A DNA stretch of 64,000 bases from Spiroplasma litorale (GTDB taxonomy: Bacteria; Bacillota_I; Bacilli_A; Mycoplasmatales; Mycoplasmataceae): NCBI RefSeq assembly GCF_001267155.1, contig NZ_CP012357.1, forward strand, positions 496,001 to 560,000. The letters are read 5' to 3'. A model generated the notes under the pieces. The model searched no databases. It saw nothing but the letters and a program-made list of their open reading frames with translations, and had not been told where the DNA came from. Positions within the stretch are counted from its first letter, which is position 1. Each line of letters starts with the position of its first letter. The translations under genes were made by a program, and so were the position numbers. Of the stretch, positions 21,938-29,056 are shown piece by piece.

Positions 21938-22016
21938 TTTTTTTAGCAAGATTATAATAAAAAAATAACATATTTAAATGCTATAATATTATTGTTCAAA
22001 ATAGTCGGTGATAAGA

Positions 22017-22781
22017 ATGAAAAAAATTTTATTTATATTTTTATTGTTTCCAATAATCATTATTTCGTTGTGCAATTTTTTTATTAGCCAAAATTTGAAT
22101 GAAAACAATAATACACTTGAAGATAAATTAAATCAAATCATACGCAAAAACAAAGATTGACCAGAAGAAAATGATAAATTTTTAGATGTTTGGGTTAATT
22201 TGCACGAAGAATCTTTAAAGCAAATAAACAATTCAATTAAAAATATAGTTGATCATTATACTAGTGTTTATATTGAAAAATATTATTATTATAAGCAAAA
22301 TCATTATGTAGGCGACACAGATTCATATGGTGTTCCAAATTTTGAATTAAACAAATTATTAAATGATATATATAATTCAGATGAAGTTCAATTTCAAAGC
22401 GCATATATACTTAGAGCTTTATATGCAGAATCAAAAATTAATGTCATATTAGGTAAAACTAATAATTTAATTAATCCTACAAGTGAAATAGTTTTATGAG
22501 CATTTAAGTATTATAATGCATTGGTATTTTTCCAATGAATTAAAATTTGAATTAATGAACTAGGTAGAAATATAGAATATGGTTTAAGTATTGATTTTTA
22601 TTCATTTGGTGGATATGTTCAATTAGATGAAAATGATCAACCAAAATGAGACTTACCTCCATCAGATAAAAAACCAGAAGCAAAACCAAAAACTTCTTTG
22701 AACAAGCAGTTAAAAGATTTTGTTGATGAAACTTATAACTTTGTATTCATAAATAAAGGAAACAAAAACAATTTTATATAA
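22017..22781 (+). CDS. Exported or anchored protein, first gene of the GH85 cluster
   Basis: 254 aa. Hydrophobic N-terminus MKKILFIFLLFPIIIISLC; the Cys follows SL, so it is only a poor lipobox, and a plain membrane anchor is equally likely. The rest is hydrophilic and helical, with an aromatic stretch (about VSIYIEKYYYYKQ region, residues 80-90) and a Pro/Lys-rich linker (KKPEAKPKTS) near the C-terminus. No family recognised. A permease gene starts 35 bases downstream, followed by GH85 and a second permease, so it is probably part of that export or glycan-use unit, perhaps a binding or accessory subunit. That role is inferred from position only. Confidence 0.7.
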
Positions 22782-22816
22782 ATTAGTTAACGCATATTAG
22801 ATAAGGGAATAAAATA

Positions 22817-23659
22817 ATGTGAGCTAAAAATAATTTTAAAAATACTTTTGTTATTTTTTTAAAAAATAACTTTTCAAATTATAAAACATATGTTTGAAGT
22901 TTTTTGCTACCATTTATATTATTTTTTGCTTTAATAACAATAAATACAAATATATTTAAAAATATACTCTTACCTCCATTGTTATTAAATATTTTATCAA
23001 TTTCAATATTTTGTACTTCATTTTTTATTTCAATAACAATTATTGATTGGAAAAAAAGATTTTATCTAAAAAAATTATTATTAGGAAACTTAAATAAAAG
23101 AGATTTTTTAATATCTATTTATTTAATTAATGTAATTTTAAATACAGTCAGTTTTTTAATTAATTACATAACTTATTTAATTCTTTGTAAAACAGGATAT
23201 TTGGTGATACATGTAAAAATTTTATCTAACTTAAATTTTGGTGTTTGAATTTTATATATAATGACAATGTTATTAACCATCTTTTTTCTAACTGTTTTAT
23301 CATTTTTTTTAACATCATTATCAAAAAAAAGATCAGTAAATTTGCTATATATAATTATAATATTGTTTTTTACAATCATATTTTCTGATACGGTATTGAA
23401 CCCAAAAATAATGAACAATAACTTATTATTGTTGATAATTGGATATTTTAATCCTATTAAATATTTTGTTTGATCGGGAATGATGGTTTCCTCATATGCT
23501 ATTTTTGATAAGTATGGTTTTACACAAATATTACCAAGAGAAAACTCTGCATATATTCCATTTGATAGTATGTACCAATCATTAATACCTTGCTTAATAT
23601 TTGTAGCTATTATATTGTATTTATACATTAGGTTTTTTGCTTGAGGAGATAAAAAATAA
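22817..23659 (+). CDS. ABC-2-like permease A flanking GH85
   Basis: 280 aa with about six to seven hydrophobic helices and a basic first 25 residues (MWAKNNFKNTFVIFLKNNF), the layout of ABC-2 membrane subunits. Trp-2 is UGA, so under the standard code the gene would seem to start much later. The stop overlaps the ATG of the GH85 gene by one base (TAATG), showing tight coupling. A similar protein lies on the far side of GH85. No ATPase gene accompanies the pair within this window. ABC-2 membership rests on topology, not on a diagnostic motif. Confidence 0.65.
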
Positions 23660-26349
23660 TGAAAAAACTAATTTATATGACATTAATTGCAATTATGCCT
23701 CTAGTTTTTATATCAGAAATATATTTTTTAGCGGACCCAAGTACCAATAAAAGTTATTACAATAATTTTAAAAACTTTAATTGAAATGATCCAATGTATG
23801 GAGATGGTATTGATTACAACCCTTACTCTGAAGATTATATTACAAAATTTAATGAATCAATTAATGATATGGGAAATATTACACCTCAATTATATAATGA
23901 TCACATTGATTATGAAAATTTTAATACAGGTTTCCAATGGGATCAAAACATAAAAAAACAAAGTGTAACTGGAGTACCCTTAAATAAAGGTTTTATGCCA
24001 AATGGTAATTATTCATATGACTTTGGAATATCTTCACCAGCTCAAAGTTATAGAATGATTAATTCAATTTTAGACTGAGAGCCAAATAAAGATAACGACG
24101 CAAAATATAATAAATCAACAAAACAACCTAAACAAAAAAAATATGTTGCAGCTAATAATGTTGATACACAAGATGAAAGATTAAGATTTAATTATTTAGG
24201 ATTTTCAACTAGAAAACATAGAACTTATGATAATACAGTTGTTGGTACAAAAAATCCTTTTGAAAATACAAATTTAAACTGACAATATAATGATGTTTTT
24301 ATTAACTGGTCAGGTTCGTGATTTGAAGGACCGATTGTGCCTCCACCAGCAGATTTTATTGAAATTGCCCATGCAAATGGTACTAAAATATATGGAGATA
24401 TTTTTCTTGATGGTTATCATGGTTTAACAAAAGACATGCTTAATGATTTTATGAAAAAAGACTCTTCAGGAAATTATTTAGTCGTGGATAAATTAATAGA
24501 AATTGCAAATTATATTGGGTTTGATGGCTGATTTATTAACAATGAATCAAATGGATCAGAACCAAATGGAACAATTTTGGATTACAAAGAAATGTATAAA
24601 ATAATTAGCCAATTTCAAGAAAAAACATCAACTTCAAAAGATGAAAATATTAAAAATTTAAAATTAATATACTACAGAAATAGTGCTACTTTAAATTATT
24701 CAGATATAGAAAAAAAATACTATGATAAAGAAACAACTTATATGGTTTCAGCAAAATATGAAGATGAAAACTTTAAAAAGTTAATTGATATTCAAGTAGA
24801 TTTTGGAGAAACACCAGAAAATTCAACACATTTTTTAAATGAATATAAAGATTACACAGGATCAAACATTAATACAATAGTTGATATAGGATGAAATGCT
24901 CAATCGTTTGGTTTTTTAGATTTTCAAAGTCTTGCTTATAAAAAGAATAAACCAGGGTCTTCAAATCAAAAATATGATAAATCAATTTTTAATGGTTTTT
25001 CAACATATGCGGATGAAGGTTCGGGTCAATTTGCAAATGACGCACTTAAATTAACTACTAGAAATATGAGTGATATTAGAAAGTATTTATTTCAAAATCA
25101 AATTGCAAATCATTTTAATGATATTTTATACAGTGGTTCAAATTTATTTTTATCAAACAAAGATAAAGGAGAAGATTTAAGCAGCTTGAAAGATATTTTG
25201 AATGGATTAGAATATAAAAAAGAATATATAAAAGCAGATCCTAGAATACATTTTGATAAAAAGTATGAAGTTAATGAAAAAGTAAAAACCCTATACAATT
25301 ATGAGTCATTTGGTGGTATTAATCAATCAAGTTATGGAATTGGAAATTTAATTAAAGAAAAAACTATATTTATTGATGAAAATATTGATAATAGCATTAT
25401 TAAAACAAATTTCTCAACAGGTAATGGAATTAAATTTGTCAATAATAACGAAATCATTAATTACCCATGAACAAATAGGAGGTTGGCTGATGCTCTCCCA
25501 ACATACAAATGAAGAATATTTGATTCAAAAAATAGAAATAATCCCTTAAGAATTGATCAATTTTCAGGAGGGTATGATTATGATGAAGTATATAGCAAAG
25601 GTAATTCAATTTCAATTGGTTCTGGATTTGATGAAACAGGAAAAATATTAGATGCAGAAAATTGAAATAAATCATTAAATTATGGTTGAGACATTATTGG
25701 TACAAATATAGTTGATAACAATAAAACAATTAGCATAGTTTATAAGGATAATGTTAAACAAGTTGATCAATCACCTGATGTTTCAATGAGGTTAACTTTC
25801 TCAGACGCAAAAGGGGTTGTAAATGACAATTCTATAAAAACTGTTAAACCTGATAGAGTTATTGAAAAATCAAATGGTTGAAAAGAAGCTGTTTATAATT
25901 TAAGTAAAGATAATTTAAGTAATAACAATGTATTAGCGATGGTAGGATTAAATATAAAACCTAATGCAAATAAATTTAAATTTAATGTTGGTGAATTAAC
26001 AATAAAAAGTAACAATTATCAATACAATACTAATGTTATTTTAATAAAAAACCCGAAATCAGAATATGTAGTTTATCGAGAATTTAATAAAAATATATTA
26101 AATAATATAAGATTCTCTTGAGAAACCGATAATAATGTCATATCAGATGTTGATTACTTTGAAATATATATACAATATAATAATTTATGATATAGAGCTG
26201 GTGAAACAAATCAAAATCAATACTATTTAAGAGATTTAAAATATGATAAGGGAATTACAATTGGTATAAAACCAATTTATAAAAATATTAATTTGAAAGG
26301 AGATATTTATAAATTTAATTTAAATATAAAAAATTATGAAAACAAATAA
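23659..26349 (+). CDS. Endo-beta-N-acetylglucosaminidase, GH85
   Basis: 896 aa. N-terminal hydrophobic anchor or signal (LIYMTLIAIMPLVFIS) without a lipobox, so probably membrane-tethered and outside. The catalytic barrel spans about residues 170-500. GFDGWFINNES holds the GH85 pair N294 and E296, which cut the GlcNAc-beta-1,4-GlcNAc core of N-glycans by substrate-assisted catalysis. VFINWSGSWFEGP and GDIFLDGYHG are other barrel strands seen in the family. The C-terminal half is beta-rich, as in enzymes with carbohydrate-binding modules. ATG overlaps the previous stop, and the next permease starts 14 bases before its end. Likely use: trimming host N-glycans. Family identity is strong; substrate and purpose are inferred. 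Confidence 0.9.
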
Positions 26350-27172
26350 ACTAAATCGTTGCATCAGTTATTTATTTAAATCTACTTTAGTATCTTCTTA
26401 TACTTATATCTATATTTTTTTAATACCTTTAATATTTGAGATTCTATTCTATTTTTTATTAATCAAAAATAGAATAGATGATAATAGGATAATTACAATT
26501 GCACCCATATTACTCTTTTCGTTAAACCTTTGTTCACTATTTGTAACTCACTTAATAATTTCTTGAAGAGAAACAATTTTTTTAAAACAAATAAAGAATT
26601 TTCAAATTAATAATGTTACATTTTTAATTGCCTTAGGGGTTGTTTATTTGGTTTATTCTTTAATTTCGTTATTAATAGTTTGTATTACTTTATTACTAAT
26701 TGATATTATTGAAGATATCAATAAAATTATGAATTTATTTAAAACGACTATTTCTAGCCCAACTTTTATATTTGTTTTATTCTTCATTGTTTTAAATATA
26801 ATTGTAATATACTTTATTTCACTTTTAATTAGTGGTTTTATTAAAAATATCTATTTGATTCAAGCTGTTAGTTTTGCGTACTTAATATTTATAATCTCTT
26901 TTGGTGACTACTTAATAGATTCTAATTATACAAATAATATTATTTATCAATTTATTAGTTATTTCAATGTTGAAAAATACTTTAATTGGTTATTTTATAT
27001 AACTTATGTTAATGCTTTTAATGGAGGTCAAAATTTATATCTAATAACATTAAATATAAGCAATGTAATACCTTTTAAAAATGTCTATGCACCATTATTT
27101 TCAATGGCTGTAATAGCACCAATTATTGGATTTTTTAGTTTTTATAAATTCAATAATTCAACAAAAATATAA
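26336..27172 (+). CDS. ABC-2-like permease B flanking GH85
   Basis: 278 aa, about six to seven helices, basic N-terminus (MKTNKLNRCISYLFKSTL). It starts inside the GH85 gene, with GAAAGGAG at 26295-26302 rather far upstream, so translational coupling is likely. Same size and layout as permease A (22817-23659); the two may form a heterodimer. No ATPase lies in this cluster. An unrelated membrane role remains possible. Confidence 0.65.
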
Positions 27173-27203: not shown

Positions 27204-27232
27204 TTGATAATTTTACTAAAATATTGTAGAAT
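27204..27232 (+). promoter_or_regulatory. Promoter of the cysteine-rich peptide gene
   Basis: TTGATA (27204-27209), 17 bases, TAGAAT (27227-27232). A GAGAGGTGAT ribosome site begins 7 bases further on, giving a very short leader. Confidence 0.7.
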
Positions 27233-27251
27233 ATTTTAGAGAGGTGATATA

Positions 27252-27338
27252 ATGGAAGACAATAAAAAACAAGATTGTAAATGCGGTACAACTGAAGGTA
27301 ATGTAAGTTGTGATTGTAATTGTGAATGTAAAAAATAA
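27252..27338 (+). CDS. 28-residue cysteine-rich peptide (metallothionein-like)
   Basis: A tiny gene with every expected signal: promoter at 27204, strong GAGAGGTGAT, ATG 27252, UAA 27336, and a terminator whose left arm overlaps the stop. The product has six Cys at positions 9, 11, 20, 22, 24 and 26, in C-x-C pairs and a CDCNCEC run, in an otherwise hydrophilic, acidic/basic peptide without a signal sequence. C-x-C arrays of this density are typical of metal-thiolate clusters, as in metallothioneins. No family membership can be shown. It lies directly upstream of lemA but is separated from it by the terminator. Alternatives: a redox-active or regulatory peptide. Confidence 0.7.
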   Translation: MEDNKKQDCKCGTTEGNVSCDCNCECKK

Positions 27339-27360
27339 TAGCAGAAGCTATTATTTTTTT
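27333..27360 (+). terminator. Strong terminator overlapping the small gene's stop
   Basis: AAATAATAGC (27333-27342), loop AGAA, GCTATTATTT (27347-27356), T-run to 27360. Confidence 0.9.
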
Positions 27361-27388: not shown

Positions 27389-27991
27389 ATGAGTCACAAC
27401 ACAATTGATCCAAATAGCCAAGTTGGTCAAAAACCCAAAAAAAATATATTTGGTATTTTATTTTGAATATTACTATGTTTAGTTTTAATAGGTCTTATAA
27501 TACATGTTATAAATTTAAACAGTTTAAAAAGGTTAAAAGTTAAAATCGATGAGGCAGAAGCGGGTATCGATGTTCAACTAAAACGTAGAAAAGATACTCT
27601 TGTTAAATTAGTTGACGCTGTAAAAGGAAGTATTGAATTTGAAAAAGATATTCAAGTTTCACTTACTAGTATGCGTACAGGTGGAAATATTAATGATTTA
27701 ATGCAAAATGCTTCTCAATTAAATGATATAAGTAGAAGAATATCAGTTCAGGTTGAAAATTACCCAAATTTAAAATCTAACGATTTAATAAAAGATTTAA
27801 TGCGTGAATCAACAAATATTGAAGAAAACATATCAGCTTCAAGAAGAATTTACAACTCTAATGTGAGTTCATTTAACCAGTCTATTAATACATATCCAAC
27901 TAATTTAGCAGCGAGCCAATTAGGATATACTTTTATGCCATTTTTTGAAATATCAGAATCAGATAGAGAAGACGTTAAAATTAAATTTTAA
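27389..27991 (+). CDS. lemA: LemA family protein
   Basis: 200 aa. One N-terminal helix (about residues 20-44: IFGILFWILLCLVLIGLI), then a long helical domain starting RLKVKIDEAEAGIDVQLKRRKDTLVKLVDAVKG, matching the LemA family (NxV..A..xIdvqlkrR.dLip.Lv). LemA proteins are membrane-anchored with the helical bundle on one side; their function is not well known. ATG 27389 follows ATAGGAG. The next gene, a DUF3137-type protein, starts 7 bases later; LemA genes often sit beside such membrane proteins. Confidence 0.88.
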
Positions 27992-27997
27992 TAAATT

Positions 27998-29056
27998 ATG
28001 GATACAGAAGCTCTTAAGCAACAAATCGAAGAAATTTATTCAAAAGATGACAATTTTATCAAATTAATTAACAGCCTTAAAAAATCATATTTTATTGGTT
28101 TTGTTTTGATAGGACTAACAATAATATTTTTTCTAATTGCAGGTGCATTAATTGCATTACCATTTTTTTTAGAAAACAAAATATTTAAAGAAAATTATTT
28201 TAAAATTATATCATACGTATTTTCGATTATTTTTGTAATACTTTTAGTATCTACATTTCTGTTTTATAACACTAAAATGGGTCCTTCAAAAATATACAAA
28301 AGCTTAAAATCAAGTCAATTTGATAACGAAAAAACAAAAAAGGTTTACGAATATTATTTTAAAAGTATAAAACTTGGAGATACTGATAAAGAATTTTTAA
28401 TGGATGTTAACTCTACAAATAATTATTTTGAATATAATTATGGGTCAAGATTAACATTAATTAAAAAAAGTAACAGAGATCTTCCGAAACCCAATGTAAT
28501 AAAATTTACTTTTAAAGATAATGAAGTTCATTTCATAATTAATCATCCAATTAAATATACTCATGAAAGAACTATAAGTACACTAATTAGCAATAAGAAT
28601 AACAATAATACTGATACTAAAGTATATTACATATCAACAGATGATTTATTTTATAAAAATACAAAATTTGATCAAAGTTATGATGGAATAAAAATAACAA
28701 AAGGAAAACACTTCGATAAAAATTTTCAAACCGAATCAGTAGTATTTAATAAAAAGTACGATATTAATCTTCCAAGCAATGATATTAGAGCTGCAAGATT
28801 TTTAAGTCCTAAGTTAATTGATAAGATGTCAACACTTAACGATAAAGATTTTAAAGAATTTGGTATAAATAAAAACTTTTATGTAAGTAAAAGTCGAAAA
28901 ACAGACTACACAAATAAAATTGATTTTCAAATCGGTGCATTAAACTATAAAAAAATTAAAAATTTTGACTCATTTAAAAAACAATTAATTAATAAAGTAA
29001 CAAGAGATTTTGAATTATTATCAAGGTCATTTAATTATATAGAAAAAATATATTAG
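27998..29056 (+). CDS. DUF3137-like membrane protein
   Basis: 352 aa. Two close helices (about residues 33-55 and 72-92) lie between a charged N-terminus and a long soluble C-terminal domain. The segment SVVFNKKYDINLPSNDIRAA followed by RFLSPKLIDKM matches the core of DUF3137 proteins, which occur next to LemA in several Firmicutes and Mollicutes. Start ATG 27998 is 7 bases after lemA. Function unknown; probably a partner of LemA in the membrane. Confidence 0.75.
   Translation: MDTEALKQQIEEIYSKDDNFIKLINSLKKSYFIGFVLIGLTIIFFLIAGALIALPFFLENKIFKENYFKIISYVFSIIFVILLVSTFLFYNTKMGPSKIYKSLKSSQFDNEKTKKVYEYYFKSIKLGDTDKEFLMDVNSTNNYFEYNYGSRLTLIKKSNRDLPKPNVIKFTFKDNEVHFIINHPIKYTHERTISTLISNKNNNNTDTKVYYISTDDLFYKNTKFDQSYDGIKITKGKHFDKNFQTESVVFNKKYDINLPSNDIRAARFLSPKLIDKMSTLNDKDFKEFGINKNFYVSKSRKTDYTNKIDFQIGALNYKKIKNFDSFKKQLINKVTRDFELLSRSFNYIEKIY

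What the first reader, a model, noticed from the sequence alone, without database searches (positions are those of the whole stretch)
27204..27360. Stand-alone 28-residue cysteine-rich peptide gene with perfect signals
Seen: TTGATA-17-TAGAAT promoter, strong ribosome site, a 28-codon gene with six Cys (C9, C11, C20, C22, C24, C26) and a terminator overlapping its stop, all within about 160 bases. Known: dense C-x-C arrays bind d10 metals in metallothioneins; such peptides are rarely reported in Mollicutes. Inferred: a tiny metal-binding, redox or signalling peptide. Minimal size and easy oversight by gene finders make it a good candidate for something undescribed.
Basis: partly seen in the sequence, partly recalled or inferred. 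Interest (0 to 1): 0.6.

Follow-up and report, generated by a model that had tools for sequence, protein, structure and literature searches.

The report
Tiny metallothionein-like peptide gene in Spiroplasma
A real but very small bacterial gene encodes a 28-residue peptide with six cysteines in Cys-X-Cys pairs; one related species keeps the same gene at the same place, and it most likely grips copper or zinc ions in a lineage that lacks the usual copper-export pump.

Summary
The window, from a Spiroplasma-like genome, carries a 28-codon ORF at 27252-27338 with six Cys at the stated positions. It has a promoter-like site, a strong ribosome site, and a 13-bp hairpin with a T-run overlapping its stop. 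No such ORF appears in 40 surrogate windows.

One of 19 congeners (G006) has an orthologue, also just upstream of lemA: MENNKKECNCGTKDGNSNCNCNCECKKK. All six Cys and their spacing are kept, dN/dS is about 0.2, and the hairpin is kept through compensatory change. The peptide was found nowhere else in 320 genomes of the order, in plasmid, phage or viral collections, or by a pattern scan of 84,980 species. No Pfam or NCBIfam family matches.

The two peptide-bearing species are sisters in a LemA tree. They lack the CPx (P1B) metal-export ATPase that their two next relatives possess; no congener has a CDF exporter. Best explanation: a minimal, independently evolved metallothionein-like cytosolic peptide, probably for Cu(I), possibly Zn. 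Metal binding is inferred, not shown. A Cys-codon attenuator for lemA is a weaker rival because no antiterminator folds. lemA starts 28 nt after the terminator, so 'stand-alone' is not certain.

The parts
27204..27232 (+). promoter-like site TTGATA-17-TAGAAT
   Evidence: 10 of 12 matches; not above chance by count; G006 has a differing promoter-like TTGTAT-17-TATTAT upstream of its copy (read by eye)
27216..27239 (.). perfect 10-bp inverted repeat CTAAAATATT-GTAG-AATATTTTAG over the -10; possible operator, unproven
   Evidence: about 1% of same-composition 79-mers hold such a repeat; unique in the genome at 0 mismatches, no excess of near matches over control; not seen in G006
27240..27248 (+). 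ribosome binding site AGAGGTGAT
   Evidence: AGAGGTGA kept in G006
27252..27338 (+). 28-codon gene MEDNKKQDCKCGTTEGNVSCDCNCECKK: C-x-C-x8-C-x-C-x-C-x-C
   Evidence: orthologue in G006 with all six Cys; dN/dS about 0.2; z 10.3 for nucleotide alignment against 2.1 and 0.8 for the flanks
27330..27360 (+). intrinsic-terminator-like hairpin and T-run overlapping the stop codon
   Evidence: counterpart with changed but still paired stem in G006
27389..27991 (+). lemA, constant downstream neighbour (ATG 28 nt after the T-run)
   Evidence: Pfam PF04011 E 4e-41
27998..29056 (+). 352-aa two-TM protein after lemA, also after lemA in G006; function unknown
   Evidence: no significant Pfam match

Best explanation
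This is a genuine small protein gene encoding a 28-residue cytosolic peptide with two thiolate blocks (CxCG ... CxCxCxC). It works like a minimal metallothionein: the six Cys wrap a small cluster of d10 metal ions, most likely Cu(I), possibly Zn(II), buffering free metal in a cell in which no P1B-type or CDF metal exporter was found. Shown here: the ORF, its orthologue, Cys conservation, purifying selection, the terminator hairpin, and the absence of matches to those exporter families. Inferred: transcription and translation, metal binding, which metal, and the buffering role.
For: All six Cys and the spacing C-x-C-x8-C-x-C-x-C-x-C are conserved in the orthologue in G006, between the same valS and lemA/comEC neighbours, although the DNA between valS and the peptide differs entirely. 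Differences concentrate at synonymous sites (dS 0.74, dN 0.15; lemA 0.91 and 0.21). Flanks are hardly alignable while the ORF aligns at z 10.3. Both peptides lack aromatic and His residues and carry 21% Cys, as in fungal Cu-thioneins (26 aa, 7 Cys, X2-CXC-X5-CXC-X3-CXC-X2-C-X3; PMC4755600). HMA domains and a fourth P-type ATPase occur in 7 of 20 congeners, including the two nearest relatives G016 and G018, but not in the peptide-bearing G000 and G006. The three ATPases of G000 and G006 have PEC/PES/PEM motifs and no CPx. No congener has a CDF exporter.
Against: Eleven congeners lack both the peptide and an HMA-bearing ATPase, so the peptide is not needed to live without one; the association rests on one branch of the tree. 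No metal-responsive regulator site could be shown: the palindrome is not conserved and has no regulon. Only two sequences exist, so selection tests are weak (P about 0.01-0.05 for excess synonymous change). No family model matches. No expression data were available.
Confidence: 0.55

Rival explanations
1. Cys-rich leader peptide of a transcription attenuator: translation of six Cys codons next to a terminator controls read-through into lemA, so the peptide itself has no function.
For: Cys codons, stop codon inside the terminator stem in both species, lemA only 28 nt downstream in the window with no good promoter in between. Precedent: polycysteine short ORFs in mycobacteria (Canestrari et al. 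2020, seen only as a citation in PMC13236596).
Against: With the terminator forbidden, its 5' arm pairs with nothing upstream in the window, so no antiterminator is seen. Non-Cys residues are also conserved (MExNKK, CG, GN, NCECKK). lemA is not a known Cys pathway gene. In G006 a promoter-like TTGTAT-18-TATAAT lies between terminator and lemA (by eye). The other 18 congeners have lemA without it.
Confidence: 0.15
2. Regulatory or metallochaperone partner of the LemA and two-TM membrane pair encoded downstream, which explains the constant linkage.
For: Immediate linkage to lemA and the same following gene in both species despite different upstream DNA.
Against: 18 other congeners have lemA without the peptide. 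Linkage may be plain inheritance of position.
Confidence: 0.1
3. Substrate peptide of a modification system (RiPP) or a secreted Cys-rich peptide.
For: Small size and Cys density. A weak match of the 22008-22778 protein to the SagH ABC permease model (E 3e-5, 22.9 bits against a cut-off of 450).
Against: No signal sequence or modification enzyme was identified nearby; the permease cluster is absent beside the G006 copy; no NCBIfam peptide model matches.
Confidence: 0.07
4. Low-molecular-weight thiol or redox buffer rather than a metal binder.
For: Six thiols; mollicutes are generally held to lack glutathione (own knowledge).
Against: CxC tandem geometry is typical of metal-thiolate clusters; cannot be separated from metal buffering by sequence alone.
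Confidence: 0.1

Closest known systems
Fungal short Cu-metallothioneins (Neurospora crassa, Agaricus bisporus; 26 aa, 7 Cys)
   Same: Length, CxC blocks, no aromatic residues, small residues and Lys between Cys
   Different: Six not seven Cys, spacing x8 and x1 instead of x5, x3, x2; no detectable sequence relation; bacterial
Mycobacterial copper metallothionein MymT
   Same: Small Cys-rich cytosolic bacterial protein that sequesters Cu(I) (PMC9470648)
   Different: No family match; the Spiroplasma peptide is shorter (MymT about 53 aa, own knowledge) and no copper regulator was tied to it
Cyanobacterial and pseudomonad metallothioneins (SmtA/BmtA type)
   Same: CxC motifs
   Different: No match to any Pfam model at E 1 or better; lacks the His residues of SmtA (own knowledge)
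Polycysteine attenuator short ORFs of mycobacteria
   Same: Short Cys-codon ORF before other genes
   Different: Dispersed conserved CxC pattern, conserved non-Cys residues, no antiterminator found

Membership tests
Metallothionein (functional class) | Small, Cys at or above about 15-30%, mostly CxC or CxxC | tested here: met
   28 aa, 6 Cys (21%), four CxC motifs
Metallothionein (functional class) | Few or no aromatic residues | tested here: met
   No F, W, Y or H in either peptide
Metallothionein (functional class) | Cys conserved among homologues | tested here: met
   6 of 6 in the only homologue found
Metallothionein (functional class) | Binds several d10 metal ions through thiolates | not testable with these tools
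   needs biochemistry
Metallothionein (functional class) | Metal-induced expression | tested here: inconclusive
   A palindrome covers the -10 but is not conserved and has no regulon
Bacterial metallothionein families (Pfam, NCBIfam models) | Match to a curated model | tested here: not met
   0 families at E up to 1; profile filters are weak for such short biased sequences
Fungal Cu-thionein family 8 | Cys pattern X2-CXC-X5-CXC-X3-CXC-X2-C-X3 | tested here: not met
   pattern here X8-CXC-X8-CXC-X-CXC-X2 (family pattern from PMC4755600)
Leader-peptide attenuator | Terminator downstream of the short ORF | tested here: met
Leader-peptide attenuator | Alternative antiterminator involving the terminator arm | tested here: not met
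   no pairing of the 5' arm in the window when the terminator is forbidden

The most novel reading that the evidence does not exclude
A 28-residue metallothionein arose de novo in one Spiroplasma lineage as its P1B copper-exporting ATPase was lost, replacing export with sequestration by one of the shortest bacterial metallothioneins known.
Probability: 0.25. Interest if true: 0.65.

Novelty: new variant of a known kind. Interest (0 to 1): 0.4.

Why it matters
If it binds metal, it would be among the smallest bacterial metallothioneins. No paper found in the held library describes a metallothionein gene of a Spiroplasma or other mollicute, within the two searches made. It would also be a clean, lineage-restricted case of a small gene that appears where a metal pump is absent. 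It shows that gene finders with length cut-offs could miss conserved genes even in reduced genomes.

Tried and rejected
Search for more family members: the fixed-spacing Cys pattern hit 28 of 320 genomes of the order. On inspection nearly all hits other than G000 and G006 read other frames of Gln/Ala-rich or low-complexity genes. A 138-aa ORF in G210 has the same spacing but no other likeness. CxCxCxC hits in congeners that were inspected lay out of frame in longer genes or lipoproteins. A stricter pattern in 84,980 species gave ten unrelated Cys-rich stretches. Plasmid, phage and viral collections gave none. The best PDB hit was a defensin at E 5.6, meaningless. The palindrome as a regulon operator was rejected for lack of further sites. 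Rfam gave no RNA family in the window. A first LemA tree and a first upstream scan used wrong-strand sequences for minus-strand loci; both were redone. An earlier count gave slightly wrong coordinates for the palindrome; 27216-27239 is right.

Full report
What is there. The window lies in a complete 1.2255-Mb genome that reads TGA as Trp and resembles Spiroplasma. At 27252-27338 sits an ORF of 28 codons, MEDNKKQDCKCGTTEGNVSCDCNCECKK, present once in the genome. A promoter-like TTGATA-17-TAGAAT, the ribosome site AGAGGTGAT, and a 13-bp hairpin followed by a T-run that overlaps the stop surround it. Promoter-like sites are common by chance in such AT-rich DNA, so the promoter alone is weak evidence. 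The Cys-rich ORF itself is not a chance product: none arose in 40 Markov surrogates of the window.

A homologue exists. Of 20 genomes of the genus held, one other, G006, has a relative: MENNKKECNCGTKDGNSNCNCNCECKKK. It too lies directly before lemA, with valS and a small membrane protein further upstream and comEC downstream, as in the window (gene names from sequence likeness, own knowledge, except lemA by Pfam). Between valS and the peptide the two genomes hold unrelated DNA: ABC permeases and a GH85 glycosidase in the window, a lipoprotein and a broken oxidoreductase gene in G006. The peptide-lemA junction is therefore the stable part.

Selection. Over 27 aligned codons there are 15 identical, 4 synonymous and 8 non-synonymous codons; dS 0.74, dN 0.15, ratio 0.20, close to lemA (0.91, 0.21). 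Both changes in Cys codons are synonymous. The ORF aligns far above shuffled sequence (z 10.3) while its flanks hardly do (2.1 and 0.8). With two sequences the formal test is modest (P 0.01-0.05). The hairpin is kept with altered pairs (AATAATAGC/GCTATTATT against AAAAAATAGC/GCTATTTTTT), so termination also seems to matter.

Range. No other member was found in 320 genomes of the order, and none in plasmids, phages, viral contigs or a pattern scan of 84,980 species. The pattern scan may leave out near relatives of the window. Pfam and NCBIfam have no matching model.

Phylogeny and metal export. In a LemA tree G000 and G006 are sisters (91/79), then G016, then G018 (99/97 for all four). G016 and G018 carry HMA domains and a fourth P-type ATPase; the G016 ATPase has the CPC motif and copper-type end motifs (motif assignment from own knowledge). 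G000 and G006 have neither: their three P-type ATPases lack CPx. No genome of the genus has a CDF exporter match, though the same search rings in all 14 control genomes. Loss of the pump and gain of the peptide may thus fall on one branch. This is a single event, and eleven other congeners lack both, so it is a hint only.

Mechanism. Most likely the six thiolates bind a small metal cluster in the cytosol. CxC-only arrays without aromatic residues resemble the short copper thioneins of fungi (26 aa, 7 Cys; PMC4755600), and bacteria have a copper metallothionein precedent in MymT (PMC9470648). The Cys spacing differs from the fungal family, and no sequence relation to any family was found, so this would be convergence, not membership. 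Binding, metal identity and expression are inferred.

Main rival. In the window only 28 nt separate the T-run from lemA, so lemA may be read through the hairpin, or use the TATTAT inside it as a -10. A Cys-codon attenuator is therefore a real possibility. Against it, no antiterminator forms and the non-Cys residues are conserved.

Verdict. A real, conserved, lineage-restricted small gene, metallothionein-like in build; function unproven.

Noticed in passing
22008-27172: A block of ABC-2-like permeases and a GH85 endo-beta-N-acetylglucosaminidase sits between valS and the peptide-lemA unit; G006 has a different insertion there (lipoprotein and a broken flavin oxidoreductase gene), suggesting an insertion-prone site.
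   Followed up: partly
22008-22778: Weak match to the SagH ABC permease model (E 3e-5, far below the curated cut-off).
   Followed up: no
L147:4564-6673: G016 CPC-type P-type ATPase with a separate 71-aa HMA protein; HMA proteins are patchy in the genus (7 of 20) and CDF exporters are absent from all 20.
   Followed up: partly
L150:7316-8525: G016 keeps lemA but lacks the two-TM gene that follows lemA in the window and in G006.
   Followed up: no
L108:5184 and L109:4005: An identical 37-residue stop-to-stop Cys-rich frame (...CCSNHIRNCRCGKCGIVVCLCPCRCKSG) in Hespellia stercorisuis and a Clostridia MAG.
   Followed up: no
L078 near 1501: A 138-aa Cys-rich ORF in G210 with the same six-Cys spacing (CECWVTDDIQDCYCQCTC) but no other likeness to the peptide.
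   Followed up: no
L103, L105, L106, L107: Oscillibacter-type Cys-rich proteins with a hydrophobic stretch and long CGCGCNCNC tails.
   Followed up: no
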